Assembly (NCBI RefSeq): GCF_017982655.1
Contig: NZ_JABXYX010000052.1
Span: 1-50,560, forward strand
Direction of reading: 5' to 3'
Length of the DNA stretch: 50,560 bases
Source of the DNA: Brasilonema sp. CT11
Lineage (GTDB): Bacteria; Cyanobacteriota; Cyanobacteriia; Cyanobacteriales; Nostocaceae
Shown one piece after another: positions 1,956 to 34,576 of the stretch. Numbering within the stretch: position 1 is the first letter of the stretch; each line of letters begins with the position of its first letter. Made by a program: the position numbers and the translations under genes. Below the pieces are notes generated by a model. That model saw only the letters and a list, made by a program, of their open reading frames with translations, did not search any database and was not told the DNA's origin.

Positions 1956-2438
1956 ATGAAAAAAGCTTTTAGTTTCTACGGGATTATTCTGGGATCAGTT
2001 TTGCTAAGTATCGTCTTGAGTTTTACGTCAGGGAAAATTTTGGCACAAACTGAAAACTCTGAAGTTAGTGGAGGCAAGGCGGTTATCGAAAATTCTGGCT
2101 CAACGAATACCTGCCCTTACACAATTTCTGTTTTACCTGGTGGAGCAGCAACTTACACTGTTTGCAACAAAACGGGGAAGGGTGAAGTTTCATCTGGGCT
2201 AAGTAAGAGATTTTTTGAGGATATAAAAACTGCCCAGGCACTAGAAAATGTACCATTTACCCCTTGTGTGAAAAGCGCGTCGTTCGGTACAACGACTAAA
2301 GTGAAGTATAAAGAACAAACGTCTCCTGATATTAGTTGTCCTAGTTTTGATTCTAGAGTTACAGACTTATATGAGGATACAGTCAAAATTCAGCAACAGT
2401 TAGGTTTTTCAACAAAGATAAAAAGTAGCTCAACCTAA
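1956..2438 (+). CDS. Small secreted protein of unknown function
   Basis: 160 residues. The N-terminus is a signal peptide: two Lys, a hydrophobic core (FYGIILGSVLLSIVLSFTSG) and a likely cleavage near ILAQTEN. The mature part has four Cys (in TNTCPYTI, YTVCNKTG, FTPCVKS and DISCPSF), enough for two disulfides in the periplasm or outside the cell, and a central GGAATYTVCNKTGKGEVSSGL segment. The final third ends in a KIKSSST tail. I do not recognise the family. The gene is monocistronic and convergent with the chelatase gene; the hairpin at 2455-2491 separates them. No strong ribosome site is visible before the ATG. Confidence 0.65.
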   Translation: MKKAFSFYGIILGSVLLSIVLSFTSGKILAQTENSEVSGGKAVIENSGSTNTCPYTISVLPGGAATYTVCNKTGKGEVSSGLSKRFFEDIKTAQALENVPFTPCVKSASFGTTTKVKYKEQTSPDISCPSFDSRVTDLYEDTVKIQQQLGFSTKIKSSST

Positions 2439-2521: not shown

Positions 2522-3640
2522 TTAATGATGATGGTGATGATGATGTGCAACGGCTAACTGGGGATTAATTGCCACAGTTTCTTCTGACAACAACTCGTTA
2601 ATATGAGCGTTTGCCCACTGGGCTGCCATGTATAAGAACTCAGGATCGTCGTTAACGCAAGGCATCTGCACGTAATTTACATCAGAATGCTTTTTCTCTA
2701 AGGCATGAATGATGTGGTGTACATCCAGTAGAGTTTCATGGTTTTCTGTCGCAAAACCAATCGGCATAAATACAATTGCTTTGGCACCTAATTGAATCAG
2801 GTTTTTCGCTGCTTGTTGAGCATTTGGCAGCGTCCATTCAATCAAGGGTGTGTCATGGTTGAGCCATCCGACAGAAATCAGAGGGTAGCGGTAGATTAAC
2901 TTGTCGCGGACTAAGTCGTAGAGTATCTGACTTTCGGTAATTCCAGAGGTGAATCCTTTGGCTTTATGGGGACAACCGTGGTTCATCAGCACAATGCCAA
3001 TTTGAGAAGGTAGGTAAGCACTGGCTAAGTCAGCTGTAATTTTCTCTTCGACTAGATGCGCCATCAAGTCGATGTAAGCTGGTTCATTGTAGAACGAGGG
3101 GATGTAGCGCAGTCCTTTCACCCAATGCTCATCACCCTCTGCTATCTCGGATAAAGCGTTGTTGACTTGTTCTATAGCAATACCGCTGGTGAAGATGGAA
3201 TCTACAACCAGCAGCGGGTAGATGAGTATTTTGTCAAAACCTTGATTTTTGATTTCTGCCAGGACTTGTTTGGGTAGGAAGGGAGCGCAAAAGTTGAAGG
3301 CTTTAAAAACTTGAACACCTTCACCCCACTTGGCTTGTAGGTCTTTTTCAATGCCAGCACGTTGTTTTTCAAAAATAGCGTTGTGTGGGGAAATAAAATC
3401 ATGGTGCTGATGTCCCCACTCATGACGGTCAAATAATGCCAAAAGCTTTGCCAAGGGAGGATACACCCAAGTAGGGACGGGTGCAAATTTTGCTGTCAGG
3501 AGATTTAAGGCTTGTTCATTATAGTTAGCGAAATCTTCGTAGCTTTCGACTTCACCATAACCCATGAGCAATACTGCTACTCGTTGTTGACTGGGCGATC
3601 GCTCATGCGTTGAATCTAGTTTTTCTGGTGTGGCAACCAC
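2522..3640 (-). CDS. HemH-family (class II) tetrapyrrole chelatase with natural heptahistidine tail
   Basis: 372 residues with the ferrochelatase fold signature throughout. The motif MNHGCP places the catalytic His at H221, and FATENHETLLDVH places the catalytic Glu at E302. The 81-residue spacing equals that between H183 and E264 of Bacillus subtilis HemH. It lacks the C-terminal chlorophyll-binding helix of standard cyanobacterial HemH. Instead the last seven codons before the stop (2525-2545) are all His, so it is probably a paralogue that inserts Fe, Co or Ni into a tetrapyrrole, or stores metal. Its substrate is not known. The start is GTG at 3640, supported by a GAGG site 7-8 nt upstream. 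A GGATAGGAT palindrome lies about 136 bp upstream. Alternative: a second housekeeping ferrochelatase. Confidence 0.85.
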   Translation of the reverse strand: MVATPEKLDSTHERSPSQQRVAVLLMGYGEVESYEDFANYNEQALNLLTAKFAPVPTWVYPPLAKLLALFDRHEWGHQHHDFISPHNAIFEKQRAGIEKDLQAKWGEGVQVFKAFNFCAPFLPKQVLAEIKNQGFDKILIYPLLVVDSIFTSGIAIEQVNNALSEIAEGDEHWVKGLRYIPSFYNEPAYIDLMAHLVEEKITADLASAYLPSQIGIVLMNHGCPHKAKGFTSGITESQILYDLVRDKLIYRYPLISVGWLNHDTPLIEWTLPNAQQAAKNLIQLGAKAIVFMPIGFATENHETLLDVHHIIHALEKKHSDVNYVQMPCVNDDPEFLYMAAQWANAHINELLSEETVAINPQLAVAHHHHHHH

Positions 3641-3728: not shown

Positions 3729-3775
3729 GGTTCAGCACCCTTAGGTCTTGTTGTTTTCCATACTCGTAAAATTTT

Positions 3776-3797
3776 ATCCTATCCAGGGGGATAGGAT
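3776..3797. promoter_or_regulatory. Perfect 9-bp palindrome, candidate metal-regulator operator
   Basis: ATCCTATCC (3776-3784), spacer aggg, GGATAGGAT (3789-3797). Read on the minus strand the core is TATCCCCCTGGATA: a C-tract flanked by inverted TATC/GATA. This resembles the G/C-tract operators of CsoR/RcnR/InrS copper, nickel and cobalt sensors. It sits 136 bp upstream of the His-tailed chelatase, with the A/T-rich TAAAATTTTA on its downstream side. The resemblance is by eye. Confidence 0.4.
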
Positions 3798-4117
3798 GAA
3801 AAAGTAAAAATAAGTCGTATTTATCATGACTACCCTCTATTTACTACCGAAGATACAGACACAACAATGACTCAAAATGACTTTAGAGGTTTGACATATA
3901 CTTGTTCTGCAAATTGTGTAGCACTTGATAGACTGGAATTGATATGTTGAGTTGTTAATTGTAAGGACAAGTCACCGCTTTGCTGAATTCAAACAGGTTG
4001 AATCTTTTTTTGAATATTGCAAGCCGTTATGTGTCCGAGAAAATATGGTGTTATATGTTTTATTTATAACTAAATATTATACATACCTTGAGGTTAAAGC
4101 TGCTAACAGAAGAAGAA
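3798..4117. other. Intergenic region without a supported gene
   Basis: AT-rich, presumably the promoter region of the + strand hydrolase-like gene. A 65-codon open frame (3952-4149) and a 27-codon one (from 3867) lack ribosome sites and protein-like composition. I see nothing else. Confidence 0.5.
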
Positions 4118-4690
4118 ATGAGTATAATTATTTGCCCTGGAATTCATGAGTCACTTTTCACTCAATGTTTTGTATCAGGGTGGATAGACCAACTTAGAGA
4201 TGAAGTCAAAACGAAAAAAGCAGTAGATGTACTGATGTTTCCGGGTGAGGGTGGTTTAGCTTTATCAGGATTTCATTTATGGCAATTTTTACACAAACAC
4301 TTGCAGGATAGGATAGAATCGCCGGTTGTATTCATTAGCTTTAGTGCTGGTGTTGTTGGGGCAATACTCGCTGCTCATAAATGGCAACAAATTGGCGGTT
4401 ATGTCAAAGCTTTTATTGCTATAGATGGATGGGGAGTTCCTATGTGGGGAAATTTTCCTATCCATCGGATGAGTCATGATTATTTCACCCACTGGAGTTC
4501 TTCTATGCTGGGAAGTGGGCAGAATAACTTTTGTGCAGACCCGCCTGTTGACCATCTGCAAATGTGGCGATCGCCCCAAAGTGTTCAAGGCTACTGTTTA
4601 GACTCTTGTTTTAGCGAATCACCGCCAAAACAGCGTCTGAGTGCGGCTGAGTTTTTGCACTTGCTTTTAAAGCATTATGAAGATAACTAG
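4118..4690 (+). CDS. Alpha/beta-hydrolase-like protein of unknown substrate
   Basis: 190 residues from the chosen ATG (an in-frame ATG at 4088 would add ten residues, but AGAAGAAGAA directly precedes 4118). A buried beta strand, PVVFISFSAGVVGAILAA, carries an S-F-S-A-G nucleophile-elbow-like turn near residue 79. MFPGEGGLALSG may form the oxyanion region, and VKAFIAIDGWGVP is a following core strand. A late His (FPIHRMSHDYFTHWSS) could complete a triad, but I cannot identify the acid with certainty. It is shorter than typical hydrolases, about 250 residues or more. Monocistronic or just upstream of the MFS gene, with a gap of 133 bp. Confidence 0.6.
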   Translation: MSIIICPGIHESLFTQCFVSGWIDQLRDEVKTKKAVDVLMFPGEGGLALSGFHLWQFLHKHLQDRIESPVVFISFSAGVVGAILAAHKWQQIGGYVKAFIAIDGWGVPMWGNFPIHRMSHDYFTHWSSSMLGSGQNNFCADPPVDHLQMWRSPQSVQGYCLDSCFSESPPKQRLSAAEFLHLLLKHYEDN

Positions 4691-4823
4691 TCCGGAAAAC
4701 AGATTTACCAAGTAGGAATGAGTAATGGAAGATCAGGGGATAAGGGAGTCATGAGTTCCCCTGCTTCCCCAACTTCCTTTACTCCTCCCTGACGATGACG
4801 AGTTGCTATCTCAAAAGATTCTA

Positions 4824-6092
4824 ATGTTTCCAACTGAACCTGCTGCTGTTAATAAAGGGTTTACTGCGATTCTCAAAAACCGTGGTTTTATGCTGCTGTG
4901 GATTGGGCAATTGGTATCCCAATTAGCAGATAAAGTCTTTTTTGTTTTGATAATTGCTCTGCTTGAGAACTACCCAGCCCCTGCTGGATTAGCACAAAAC
5001 TCAATGTACTCGACGTTGATGGTAGCGTTTACAGTACCAGCAGTCTTATTTGGTTCTGCGGGTGGTATCTTTGTTGACCGCTTCCCAAAAAAACTCATTA
5101 TGGTTGGCTCTGATATCCTGCGCGGGCTATTAACGCTGTGTATTCCTTTTTTGCCACGAGAGTTTGTTATTCTGCTGATCGTAACTTTTGCCATCTCCAC
5201 TGTGACGCAGTTTTTTGCACCCGCTGAGCAAGCTGCTATTCCGCAGTTGGTTAAAAAAGAAAATTTGATGGCAGCCAATGCGCTGTTTAGCAGCACAATG
5301 ATGGGAGCTTTAATTGTTGGCTTTGCTGTGGGGGAGCCAATCTTAAGTTGGGCGAAAAACTCAATAGGATCAAAATATGGTCAAGAACTGATCGTAGCAG
5401 GATTGTACCTGTTGTCTGCGGGCGTCATGCAACCCATTAATTTTAGAGACAAGGTATCTTTTGACAAGAATCAACCAGCCATCAATGCCTGGGCTGACTT
5501 TAAAGAGGGTTTGCGTTATCTCAAGAAAAACCGTCTTGTGTTGAATGCTATGCTGCAACTGACGACATTATACTGTGTGTTTGCAGCATTAACAGTACTG
5601 GCTATTAGATTAGCAAAAAAGTTTGGCTTAGAAGAAAAACAATTTGGCTTTTTCTTGGCAGCAGCTGGGATAGGTATGGTTTTGGGAGCAGCGATTTTAG
5701 GTAACTGGGGTGAAAAAGTTCAGCGCAAGCCCTTACCCCTGATTGGGTTTTTAATTATGGCGCTGGTTTTAGGAGTGTTCAGTTTTACTAACAACTTGCT
5801 CTTAGCTTTAGCACTTTGTGCATTGTTGGGTATAGGCGCTGCTTTCATTGGGGTACCAATGCAAACTCTGATTCAACAGCAAACACCACCGACAATGCAT
5901 GGTAAAGTATTTGGGTTTCAAAATCATGCCGTGAACATAGCCCTCTCAGCACCACTGGCAATCACCGGTCCACTCACTGATGCTCTTGGGTTGCGAATTG
6001 TGCTTGTGGGAATGAGTATTATCGTAGTGACTGTCGGCGTTTGGGCTTGGCAAAACAGTCGTCGAGTATTGCGAGACATTTTTCTAAAATGA
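4824..6092 (+). CDS. MFS transporter (EntS/MFS_3-like exporter)
   Basis: About 422 residues with roughly twelve hydrophobic segments. The N-terminal RGFMLLWIGQLVSQLADKVFFVLIIALL and GGIFVDRFPKKLIMVGSDILRG (the MFS loop 2-3 motif, D-R-x-x-K-K) are typical of small-molecule exporters. The middle TQFFAPAEQAAIPQLVKKENLMAANALFSSTMMGALIVGFAVG is characteristic of the EntS/MFS_3 subgroup. Substrate unknown. ATG 4824 is preferred to an in-frame TTG at 4803. The stop is 113 bp before ilvB on the same strand; that gap is AT-rich and ilvB probably has its own promoter. Confidence 0.82.
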   Translation: MFPTEPAAVNKGFTAILKNRGFMLLWIGQLVSQLADKVFFVLIIALLENYPAPAGLAQNSMYSTLMVAFTVPAVLFGSAGGIFVDRFPKKLIMVGSDILRGLLTLCIPFLPREFVILLIVTFAISTVTQFFAPAEQAAIPQLVKKENLMAANALFSSTMMGALIVGFAVGEPILSWAKNSIGSKYGQELIVAGLYLLSAGVMQPINFRDKVSFDKNQPAINAWADFKEGLRYLKKNRLVLNAMLQLTTLYCVFAALTVLAIRLAKKFGLEEKQFGFFLAAAGIGMVLGAAILGNWGEKVQRKPLPLIGFLIMALVLGVFSFTNNLLLALALCALLGIGAAFIGVPMQTLIQQQTPPTMHGKVFGFQNHAVNIALSAPLAITGPLTDALGLRIVLVGMSIIVVTVGVWAWQNSRRVLRDIFLK

Positions 6093-22447: not shown

Positions 22448-23134
22448 GTGTTTTTTCATAAAAAAGAAACAATTCGACCTGTTAACATTGCCGATCCAAA
22501 TCCACGTTTTGCTCAACTGCTTTTAGAGCAATTTGGTGGCGCTACAGGTGAATTAACAGCGGCTTTGCAATACTGGACGCAATCCTTACATTGCGAACAT
22601 GCCGGAATTAAGGATATGTTGCAAGATATTGCTATCGAAGAGTTTAGCCACTTAGAAATGATTGGTAAGCTCATCGACTCTCATACCAAAAATGTTGACC
22701 AAACTGAAGCTTACAAAAGTACCTTGTTTGCTGTGCGGGGTGTTGGACCTCACTTGCTAGATAGTCAAGGTCAAGCTTGGTCAGCAGCTTATATTAATGA
22801 AGGTGGTGACGTAGTGCGTGATTTGCGGGCAGACATTGCGGCTGAAGCTGGCGCACGTCAAACTTACGAGTCATTGATTAAGCTAGCTCCTGATGAAGGA
22901 ACCAAAGAGGCACTTGTTCATCTTCTGACTCGGGAAATTTCTCATACTCAAATGTTCATGAAGGCGTTGGACTCTTTGGGTAAGTTAACAGACCCATTCT
23001 TTGGTAATATCCAACCTGATAGCACTGTAGACATTTACTACAACTTGTCTACCAATGGTAAGGATGAGCGCGGTCCTTGGAACGAGGAACCTACTTTCCG
23101 TTACATTGCTGACCCCGTTGCAGAACAAAAGTAA
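22448..23134 (+). CDS. Manganese catalase
   Basis: 228 residues, the length of the compact cyanobacterial Mn-catalases (KatA/KatB type). It disproportionates H2O2 at a di-Mn centre in a four-helix bundle. Metal ligands are visible: E35 in GELTAALQYW, E65 and H68 in IEEFSHLEM, the Glu in IAAEAGARQTYE and the His in REISHTQMF. The C-terminal tail wraps subunits together and ends ERGPWNEEPTFRYIADPV. The GTG start is well supported by AAGGAGAA about 7 nt upstream. Monocistronic, with a hairpin at 23186-23208. Confidence 0.93.
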   Translation: MFFHKKETIRPVNIADPNPRFAQLLLEQFGGATGELTAALQYWTQSLHCEHAGIKDMLQDIAIEEFSHLEMIGKLIDSHTKNVDQTEAYKSTLFAVRGVGPHLLDSQGQAWSAAYINEGGDVVRDLRADIAAEAGARQTYESLIKLAPDEGTKEALVHLLTREISHTQMFMKALDSLGKLTDPFFGNIQPDSTVDIYYNLSTNGKDERGPWNEEPTFRYIADPVAEQK

Positions 23135-34312: not shown

Positions 34313-34383
34313 CTGGCGACTAATGGAAGAATCAAGAAGATTTGGCAAAAAGAAGTATGGCTATTATCTCATGCTAAACTACA

Positions 34384-34517
34384 CACTTGGAGTCGGGAAA
34401 GTCCGGTGAAATTCCGGTACTGTGCCGCAGCTGTAATCCGATTTTGCTAGTGCTTAGTAGTTGATAAAACAGCTAACAACCTACAAATTCGGTTAGTCAG
34501 AATGCTGACTCCAAGGG
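34384..34517 (+). ncRNA. Cobalamin (B12) riboswitch
   Basis: Core elements in order: CTTGGAGTC (34386-34394, P1 5' strand), GGGAA, CCGGTGAAATTCCGG, ACTGTGCCGCAGCTGTAA, then a variable arm and the B12-box-like AGTCAGAATGCTGACTCCAAG. GACTCCAAG (34507-34515) closes P1. It lies 72 bp from the cobL start and 60 bp before the preferred cobG start, so cobG-cobH-cobI should be repressed by (pseudo)cobalamin. Confidence 0.93.
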
Positions 34518-34576
34518 TGTCTTGTACACACAGTTGTTATCTGCTCTCTGCGTCGCACGGGGAAGGAGTTGTAGGC

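What the first reader, a model, noticed from the sequence alone, without database searches (positions are those of the whole stretch)
2525..2545. Natural heptahistidine tail on a HemH-family chelatase
Seven consecutive His codons (mixed CAT/CAC) precede the stop of an otherwise complete class II chelatase. Its catalytic His and Glu are spaced exactly as in Bacillus HemH. His-rich stretches are known in nickel and cobalt chelatases and metallochaperones. The protein lacks the cyanobacterial HemH membrane helix, so it may serve Co or Ni (corrin, F430-like) rather than heme. The window also carries seven corrin-pathway genes.
Basis: partly seen in the sequence, partly recalled or inferred. Interest (0 to 1): 0.72.

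Follow-up and report, generated by a model that had tools for sequence, protein, structure and literature searches.

The report
His-tailed cyanobacterial chelatase with hydrolase partner
Many cyanobacteria carry a second, iron-chelatase-like enzyme that ends in a natural run of histidines and is almost always kept or lost together with one unstudied hydrolase gene, which points to an unknown pigment-handling step tied to photosynthesis rather than to heme or vitamin B12.

Summary
ORF 2522-3640(-), 372 aa, ends in seven His codons (2525-2545). It is a ferrochelatase-fold protein (call it HemH2) beside a separate canonical HemH in the same genome. The tail is not private: 134 of 134 distinct clade-A homologues examined have at least five His after the core. 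A 2021 paper already noted His-rich, CAB-less cyanobacterial ferrochelatases and left them unstudied (PMC8529089, passages), so the tail itself is known.

New here: HemH2 has a near-obligate partner, an unnamed alpha/beta-hydrolase (window 4121-4690, 'c1'), divergently transcribed. Of 291 Cyanobacteriia genomes, 162 have both, 121 neither, 8 one only. In three reduced genomes, by size and kinship non-photosynthetic diatom endosymbionts, hemH2 is broken; c1 is broken in the two where it is detectable. One has the size of RgSB, whose B12 genes are published as undamaged. The window's genome has CobN. Corrin synthesis is therefore an unlikely job.

Best reading: a chelatase for a photosynthesis-linked, perhaps chlorophyll-derived tetrapyrrole, the tail loading Ni, Co or Zn. 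The pairing is shown; metal and substrate are inferred.

The parts
2522..3640 (-). hemH2: 372-aa ferrochelatase-fold chelatase (GTG start), below the NCBIfam hemH cut-off, paralogue of the canonical HemH at G000:C86
2525..2545 (-). C-terminal heptahistidine tail (CAT six times, CAC once)
   Evidence: at least five His after the core in 134 of 134 distinct clade-A proteins
2735..2737 (-). codon of catalytic Glu302 (ENHETLLD); place computed from the residue number
   Evidence: E in 49 of 49 rows
2978..2980 (-). codon of catalytic His221 (MNHGCPHK); place computed from the residue number
   Evidence: H in 48 of 49 rows
3557..3559 (-). codon of Tyr28 (LLMGYGE), by motif the counterpart of the active-site Tyr13 of B. 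subtilis CpfC (MAYGTP); canonical cyanobacterial HemH has NLGGP here
   Evidence: Y in 49 of 49 rows; the CpfC motif is visible, but HMMER did not align it to this stretch, so the equivalence is by motif and place, not by alignment
3775..3798 (.). 24-bp inverted repeat (minus strand CATCCTATCCCCCTGGATAGGATA) in the divergent promoter region; only site in the 8.8-Mb assembly with two or fewer mismatches to the motif; conserved upstream of hemH2
   Evidence: 106 of 147 distinct upstream regions against 0 to 4 in three dinucleotide shuffles
4121..4690 (+). c1: 189-aa uncharacterised alpha/beta-hydrolase, partner gene (frame open from TTG 4088)
4803..6092 (+). MFS transporter; a relative lies next to c1 in several genomes, in some (L221, L222, L223, L234, by my reading) also where c1 is away from hemH2; possible exporter, untested

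Best explanation
HemH2 is a second, soluble HemH-fold tetrapyrrole chelatase of cyanobacteria that works with the alpha/beta-hydrolase c1 on a photosynthesis-linked substrate, most likely a chlorophyll-derived chlorin arising in photosystem turnover or photo-stress, and not on heme or corrin precursors. Steps: (1) shown: HemH2 (clades A and B) and c1 are kept and lost together with few exceptions. (2) shown: HemH2 keeps the catalytic His and Glu; by motif it has a Tyr where coproporphyrin ferrochelatases have their active-site Tyr. (3) shown by pattern: in the samples used the pair is confined to the photosynthetic class; hemH2 is broken in three reduced genomes taken to be non-photosynthetic endosymbionts, and c1 in the two of them where it is still detectable. 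(4) inferred: c1 hydrolyses an ester of the pigment and HemH2 exchanges or inserts a metal. (5) inferred: the His tail captures and hands over a divalent metal (Ni, Co or Zn rather than Fe) or buffers it.
For: Pairing: of 291 genomes 162 have both, 121 neither (6 of these have only clade C), 7 HemH2 only, 1 c1 only (Fisher p about 4e-72, not corrected for phylogeny; interrupted hemH2 in G332, G363, G367 counted as present). Phylum sample of 283: 73 of 74 genomes with HemH2 have c1; the only other c1 matches are the broken ones of G584 and G640. Eight of nine Nostocaceae without HemH2 lack c1; the ninth has c1 at a contig edge. c1 lies 5' of hemH2 and points away in 22 of 52 loci, which are not all independent. 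Both are present in some genera and absent in others of the same families f5, f15, f24, f26, f36. Photosynthesis link: G562, G584, G640 (2,794,318; 3,020,309; 3,072,807 bp) carry hemH2 with stops and frameshifts; c1 is broken in G584 and G640, while canonical HemH frames are open in these two. RgSB is given as ~3.02 Mbp, without functional photosystem genes, with B12 genes undamaged and 9 of 10 chlorophyll genes without visible damage (PMC5638926). Metal: conserved tail; c1 directly before CbiM in G302 and G293 and within about 0.5-2.2 kb of it in G224 and G263; c1 after a ureG in G336. Fold: CpfC and ferrochelatases best. Expression: Nostoc alr4616 'hemH' rises 8.6-fold after low CO2 with ocp and HLIP genes (PMC7699953, table passage), if alr4616 is HemH2.
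Against: No metal or substrate was tested. 115 of 291 class genomes have neither HemH2 (any clade) nor c1, so the step is dispensable for photosynthesis. The tail is missing in 7 of 11 distinct clade-B and all 6 clade-C proteins, and the CbiM linkage is in clade-B genomes whose HemH2 has no tail (L146, L148, L149, L152). CbiM lies near c1 in only 4 of the 6 f24/f39 genomes whose places could be compared (not in G204, G284) and is widespread (219 of 291); c1 beside urease genes was seen once. RgSB's chlorophyll genes may be dispensable but not yet decayed (PMC5638926 reports raised dN), and PMC12903740 counts three missing chlorophyll enzymes, ChlP among them, so the order of loss could be chance. 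The identity of G584, G562 and G558 rests on genome size and kinship; that of alr4616 was not checked by sequence. Four genomes at least 96% complete have HemH2 without detectable c1 (G448, G309, G365, G071).
Confidence: 0.4

Rival explanations
1. Stress-induced second ferrochelatase: HemH2 inserts iron to supply heme (for example for phycobilins or stress heme proteins) when the CAB-anchored HemH is limiting; the His tail raises iron capture.
For: Catalytic His and Glu kept, fold closest to CpfC and ferrochelatases. alr4616, annotated ferrochelatase, is induced by low CO2 (PMC7699953, passage) and by H2O2 in a pkn22 mutant (PMC4518582, passages), if it is HemH2. Loss in endosymbionts without photosystems would fit a bilin supply role.
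Against: A canonical HemH stands in the same genome; HemH2 scores 84.8 against a hemH cut-off of 124.6. The position +8 from Glu302, Glu in the four canonical copies, is I, A, V, S or T in 49 of 49 rows. A heme isozyme does not explain the hydrolase partner.
Confidence: 0.25
2. HemH2 is a Co or Ni chelatase for corrins or an F430-like cofactor.
For: His tail like CbiX-L (PMC5816740, passages); a CbiX Pfam match over its cut-off on residues 264-338 (31.1 bits vs 22); CbiM-type genes beside c1 in some genomes; corrin genes in the window.
Against: CobN in the same genome and over cut-off in 265 of 291 genomes; CobG in the window; hemH2 broken in a genome of RgSB size whose B12 genes are reported undamaged; no cobalamin riboswitch near hemH2 in the window.
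Confidence: 0.06
3. HemH2 is mainly a metal buffer or metallochaperone on a chelatase scaffold; catalysis is secondary or lost.
For: Tails hold up to 29 His; clade-C relatives sit beside ZnuA/ABC-3 or Zip-like genes in five of six loci.
Against: Catalytic His in 48 of 49 and Glu in 49 of 49 rows; the tail varies in length and make-up while the clade-A core stays about 65-100% identical to the window; clade C has no tail.
Confidence: 0.13
4. The tail is an artefact (cloning tag, misassembly) or a private repeat expansion.
For: A C-terminal His run looks like a purification tag; several PDB hits to the tail look like tagged constructs.
Against: Present in genomes of many genera with differing length, codons and interspersed residues.
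Confidence: 0.01

Closest known systems
CAB-less, His-rich cyanobacterial ferrochelatases (JBC 2021, PMC8529089; passages read)
   Same: Same feature: a subset of cyanobacterial ferrochelatases with His-rich C-termini, exclusive with the CAB domain, stated there not to have been identified or studied before. HemH2 very probably belongs to this subset (inference; its sequences were not seen).
   Different: The passages read give no partner gene, clade structure, loss pattern, operator or function; these are added here.
Canonical cyanobacterial HemH (protoporphyrin ferrochelatase with CAB helix)
   Same: Same family and catalytic His/Glu; both in the same genome.
   Different: About 25% identity; NLGGP in place of MGYGE; CAB domain in place of the His tail; present also where HemH2 is absent.
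Coproporphyrin III ferrochelatase CpfC (Listeria, B. subtilis)
   Same: Best structural matches; His and Glu and their spacing; by motif the active-site Tyr.
   Different: About 19-20% identity; no His tail; part of Firmicute-type heme synthesis (recalled).
CbiX-L cobaltochelatase
   Same: Class II chelatase with a His-rich C-terminal region (PMC5816740, passages); HemH2 has a CbiX Pfam match over cut-off on residues 264-338 (31.1 bits).
   Different: MXCXXC motif absent from all 49 HemH2 rows; Ferrochelatase profile far stronger (134 bits).
CbiK cobaltochelatase
   Same: Related chelatase fold (2xvz TM 0.66 by target length).
   Different: Weaker fold match than HemH; Pfam CbiK 11.1 bits, below cut-off.
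Minimal alpha/beta-hydrolases (B. subtilis lipase A, TesA thioesterase), for c1
   Same: Fold (E about 2e-4); invariant Ser75-Ala-Gly, Asp102, His119, Asp120, His145 in 57 rows.
   Different: No Pfam match at E 0.1 for the window copy or 0.01 for three others, no meaningful NCBIfam match; only about 14-18% identity.

Membership tests
Ferrochelatase superfamily (PF00762) | Profile match above the gathering score over the whole domain | tested here: met
   134 bits vs 27, profile 2-315/317
Ferrochelatase superfamily (PF00762) | Catalytic His and Glu | tested here: met
   H221 in 48 of 49, E302 in 49 of 49 rows
HemH equivalog (TIGR00109) | Score above the curated equivalog cut-off | tested here: not met
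   84.8 bits vs 124.6; so not filed as HemH proper
Cyanobacterial protoporphyrin HemH | C-terminal CAB helix with ExxNxR | tested here: not met
   Present in four canonical copies, absent in the eleven HemH2 rows compared
Coproporphyrin ferrochelatase (CpfC) | Active-site Tyr (Y12/Y13) in an MxYG motif | tested here: inconclusive
   Tyr in MGYGE in 49 of 49 rows; matched by motif and place, not by an alignment over this stretch
Coproporphyrin ferrochelatase (CpfC) | Coproporphyrin III as substrate | not testable with these tools
   needs an assay
CbiX-L cobaltochelatase | MXCXXC motif | tested here: not met
   0 of 49 rows
CbiX-L cobaltochelatase | C-terminal His-rich region | tested here: met
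   134 of 134 distinct clade-A proteins
Corrin cobaltochelatase (functional role) | Stands in for a missing CobN | tested here: not met
   CobN over cut-off in G000 and in 265 of 291 genomes, so in at least 143 of 169 genomes with HemH2 A/B; not tabulated genome by genome
Nickel- or cobalt-specific chelatase (functional role) | Metal preference | not testable with these tools
   only indirect neighbourhood evidence

The most novel reading that the evidence does not exclude
HemH2 and c1 form a previously unrecognised cyanobacterial pathway that turns metal-free or Mg-bound chlorophyll breakdown products into harmless transition-metal (Ni or Co) chlorins: c1 removes an ester (phytyl or methyl) and HemH2, loaded by its His tail, inserts Ni(II) or Co(II), which quenches the photosensitiser. 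Nickel chlorins exist as natural products (acyl-tunichlorins from a tunicate with a cyanobacterial symbiont); the review passage seen ascribes the chlorin to the cyanobacterium and the nickel to the tunicate (PMC8074062), which leaves the inserting enzyme open but does not favour a cyanobacterial one. As far as one search shows, no nickel-chlorin chelatase is named in the library.
Probability: 0.07. Interest if true: 0.93.

Novelty: new variant of a known kind. Interest (0 to 1): 0.62.

Why it matters
A chelatase with a built-in metal-binding tail and a co-inherited hydrolase of no named family points to a tetrapyrrole step that I know from no described pathway, yet it is present in 169 of 291 sampled genomes of the class (clade A or B), including one whose chromosome has the length I recall for Gloeobacter violaceus (4,659,019 bp). 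It turns a remark of 2021 (His-rich ferrochelatases exist) into a testable two-gene unit, removes the B12 role as the default guess, and gives concrete knockouts and assays. If the substrate is chlorophyll-derived it bears on how cyanobacteria deal with phototoxic pigments. It also warns annotators who call such genes hemH.

Tried and rejected
Corrin cobaltochelatase replacement: rejected, CobN is in the genome and in at least 143 of 169 genomes with HemH2. Zur and HLR1 sites upstream: not clearly above one mononucleotide shuffle (up to 3 mismatches: Zur 14 vs 10, HLR1 17 vs 22 of 147). Cobalamin riboswitch control of hemH2: none near it in the window, none at gathering score in the ten loci scanned. 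InrS/RcnR operator: a review gives the RcnR site TACT-G6-N-AGTA (PMC7055735, passage); a term search of PMC4235346 returned no passage and the passages of PMC4528141 show no site sequence, so the palindrome at 3775-3798 stays unassigned. It is the only good copy in the assembly, so no regulon could be read from it. An RNA-hairpin reading of the palindrome was not tested by covariation. A search for 'all4615' found no paper. Group II intron as cause of the split hemH2 genes: no Rfam hit in the five pieces; the junctions look like insertion sequences by eye. CbiM presence by itself was not seen to track HemH2 (219 of 291; not tabulated). Not done: no tree of HemH2 against other chelatases; no independence correction of the co-occurrence beyond noting state changes within families.

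Whether this is in print was checked only in an open-access library; most subscription papers are missing from it.

Full report
THE OBSERVATION. The minus-strand ORF 2522-3640 encodes 372 residues and ends in seven His codons (six CAT, one CAC) at 2525-2545 before TAA. It is a ferrochelatase-family protein: Pfam Ferrochelatase 134 bits, with a lesser CbiX match over cut-off on residues 264-338 (31.1 vs 22); NCBIfam hemH 84.8 bits, below its cut-off of 124.6. The same genome has another, canonical HemH at G000:C86 with 404.8 bits, which carries the CAB helix that the window protein lacks. I call the window protein HemH2.

THE TAIL IS CONSERVED. In the Nostocaceae sample 182 of 192 genomes have a best match at E 1.4e-125 or below; nine have no match above the level of canonical HemH, and G049 has only a clade-C relative. 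The listed alignments mostly run to the last residues of the query. Among the 151 distinct HemH2 proteins extracted from loci I sorted three groups: clade A (134, about 65-100% identical to the window), B (11, about 45-60%) and C (6, about 49-50%). All 134 A proteins have 5 to 29 His after the core (median 8), as pure His runs or mixed mainly with Gly, Ser and Asp; 4 of 11 B and 0 of 6 C proteins have five or more. Codons in the terminal runs are mixed. The tail is thus an old, kept feature of clade A, not a private mutation. A 2021 paper on ferrochelatase Fe-S motifs had already seen His-rich C-termini in a CAB-less subset of cyanobacterial ferrochelatases and said that subset had not been identified or studied (PMC8529089, passages).

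ACTIVE SITE AND FOLD. In 49 aligned HemH2 proteins Glu302 is in all, His221 in 48, Tyr28 in all. Tyr28 lies in MGYGE; CpfC has MAYGTP at the end of its first strand (visible, where HMMER set it against another stretch, so the match is by motif), and canonical cyanobacterial HemH has NLGGP. The position eight residues after Glu302, Glu in the four canonical copies, is I, A, V, S or T in all 49. The predicted structure (pLDDT 82.8; residues 1-16 and 366-372, the tail, below 50) matches CpfC and ferrochelatases best (TM up to 0.86 by target length) and CbiK less well (0.66). So it keeps the machinery of a chelatase but with a pocket unlike that of the canonical enzyme of the same genome.

THE PARTNER. 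Divergently transcribed at 4121-4690 is a 189-aa protein (c1) with no Pfam hit and no meaningful NCBIfam hit (other members). Its model (pLDDT 89.8) is a minimal alpha/beta-hydrolase like B. subtilis lipase A and TesA, with invariant Ser75-Ala-Gly, Asp102, His119, Asp120 and His145 in 57 sequences. Among 291 genomes of the class, 169 have HemH2 of clade A or B (interrupted copies in G332, G363 and G367 counted), 6 only clade C, 116 neither. c1, searched with the window protein alone, was found in 163: in 162 of the 169, in 0 of the 6 and in 1 of the 116. Of the seven misses G261, G283 and G456 are 62-69% complete and G272 79%; G309, G365 and G448 stay negative also with the c1 profile. The one c1-only genome, G406, is 91% complete and showed no HemH match of any kind. 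In nine Nostocaceae lacking HemH2, eight lack c1; in G023 c1 starts at base 52 of its contig, so a neighbouring hemH2 would fall off the end. G071, with HemH2, has no c1. In the phylum sample of 283 genomes, 74 have clade A/B HemH2, 73 of these have c1, and the only further c1 matches are the broken ones of G584 and G640; this sample overlaps the class sample, and its c1 profile was built from genomes most of which have both genes. Within families f5, f15, f24, f26 and f36 (as labelled by the tool) both genes are present in some genera and both absent in others, so the association is not one old split. c1 lies 5' of hemH2 and points away from it in 22 of 52 loci examined, several of them from close relatives; in others the two are unlinked yet both present, e.g. 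G248.

A NATURAL EXPERIMENT. The phylum search brought three reduced genomes: G562 (2,794,318 bp), G584 (3,020,309 bp) and G640 (3,072,807 bp), of the same genus label as G558, whose large contig is 4,679,413 bp and whose hemH2 and c1 are intact. These sizes agree with the spheroid bodies EtSB and RgSB (about 3.02 Mbp; EtSB over 200 kb smaller) and Cyanothece PCC 8801 (4.68 Mbp) as given in PMC5638926 (passages and section 6); the identification rests on size and kinship alone, and G640 is assigned only as a member of the group. In all three hemH2 is broken by stops and frameshifts; c1 is broken in G584 and G640, far from hemH2, and not detected in G562. RgSB is reported to have no functional photosystem genes, 9 of 10 chlorophyll-synthesis genes without visible damage though with raised dN, and no damage in its B12 genes; a 2026 paper counts three missing chlorophyll enzymes, ChlP among them, and a complete pseudocobalamin pathway as far as understood (PMC12903740, passages). 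So hemH2 and c1 went with the photosystems, while heme and corrin synthesis stayed. c1 was not found outside the photosynthetic class in the phylum sample: all 75 positive genomes are listed as own, same family, order or class.

METAL. Direct evidence is lacking. In G302 and G293 c1 is followed within about 60 bp by a CbiM gene on the same strand, then CbiQ- and CbiO-like genes; CbiM was confirmed by Pfam in both, CbiQ by NCBIfam in G302, the rest is my reading. In G224 and G263 CbiM is within about 0.5-2.2 kb; in G204 and G284 it is elsewhere. These four linked genomes have HemH2 without a tail. CbiM/CbiQ belong to Co/Ni-type ECF transporters; the NCBIfam CbiM models were below their cut-offs and do not tell Co from Ni. 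In G336 c1 follows a ureG (over cut-off), a ureE-like gene (below cut-off) and, by my reading, ureD- and ureF-like genes; seen once. Against a corrin use: CobN is over its cut-off in the window's genome (1657 bits with neighbours in frame) and in 265 of 291 genomes, hence in at least 143 of the 169 with HemH2; and the window carries CobG. Clade C relatives, without tail or c1, sit beside ZnuA/ABC-3 genes or a Zip-like gene (below its cut-off) in five of six loci, and a HemH2 relative at 50.7% identity lies on a Nostoc plasmid.

CONTROL REGION. Between hemH2 and c1 lies an inverted repeat, CATCCTATCCCCCTGGATAGGATA, at 3775-3798. A repeat with at least 14 of 18 half-site positions is found in 106 of 147 distinct upstream regions (106 of 131 clade A, 0 of 11 B, 0 of 5 C), against 0, 3 and 4 in three dinucleotide shuffles; the regions are not independent. 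In 35 clade-A regions that are more distant or lack it, 24 hold GGGGATGYTA, against 0 in one shuffle. It is the only good copy in the 8.8-Mb assembly; the next has three mismatches. It goes with hemH2 also in G027, where c1 is elsewhere. What reads it is unknown.

EXPRESSION IN PRINT. alr4616, annotated hemH of Nostoc PCC 7120, rises 8.6-fold after a shift to low CO2 together with ocp and HLIP genes (PMC7699953, passages) and rises under H2O2 in a pkn22 mutant (PMC4518582, passages). PCC 7120 also has alr3751 named hemH (PMC8147232, passage). That alr4616 is HemH2 is my inference from there being two hemH genes and from the recalled gene order; I did not see its sequence.

CONCLUSION. Shown: a conserved His-tailed HemH paralogue and a co-inherited hydrolase, found only in the photosynthetic class in these samples and broken in genomes taken to be non-photosynthetic endosymbionts that keep heme and (by published analysis, for RgSB) B12 synthesis. 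Inferred: a photosynthesis-linked tetrapyrrole substrate, most likely chlorophyll-derived, and a divalent metal handed over by the tail. The boldest reading compatible with this is a pathway making transition-metal chlorins to quench phototoxic pigments. The main rival is a stress ferrochelatase.

Noticed in passing
L169/L143 (G363), L170/L153 (G332), L168 (G367:C1:1223792-1225047): hemH2 is interrupted near codon 139 in two genomes of different families, each with the halves on different contigs and, by eye, terminal-inverted-repeat-like junction sequence (insertion sequences), and has a local duplication at the same spot in a third.
   Followed up: partly
L167, L161 (G266, G277): HemH2 with an in-frame insert of roughly 34 residues near residue 173.
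   Followed up: no
L154-L159 (f33 genomes and G049); G090:C7:542953-544014; NZ_CP117772.1:542989-544020: Clade C HemH relatives (about 50% identity, no tail, no c1 in their genomes) beside ZnuA/ABC-3 or Zip-like genes and, by my reading, Dps-like genes; similar copies on a Nostoc plasmid and beside a clade-A copy in G090.
   Followed up: partly
window 34373-34527 (+): Cobalamin riboswitch overlapping the start of the CobG ORF, 30 kb from hemH2.
   Followed up: no
window 22448-23134 (+): Manganese-catalase/ferritin-like protein, below its family cut-off, just before the CbiX/SirB-like ORF.
   Followed up: no
L165/L200 (G252:C100:8417-9370): A second HemH2-like gene in G252 in which the catalytic His is replaced (MTYGSP), a possible degenerate or altered paralogue.
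   Followed up: no
window 1956-2438 (+): Small secreted-looking protein with no Pfam hit next to the hemH2 3' end; among the 32 loci compared its cluster held only the window and L061.
   Followed up: no
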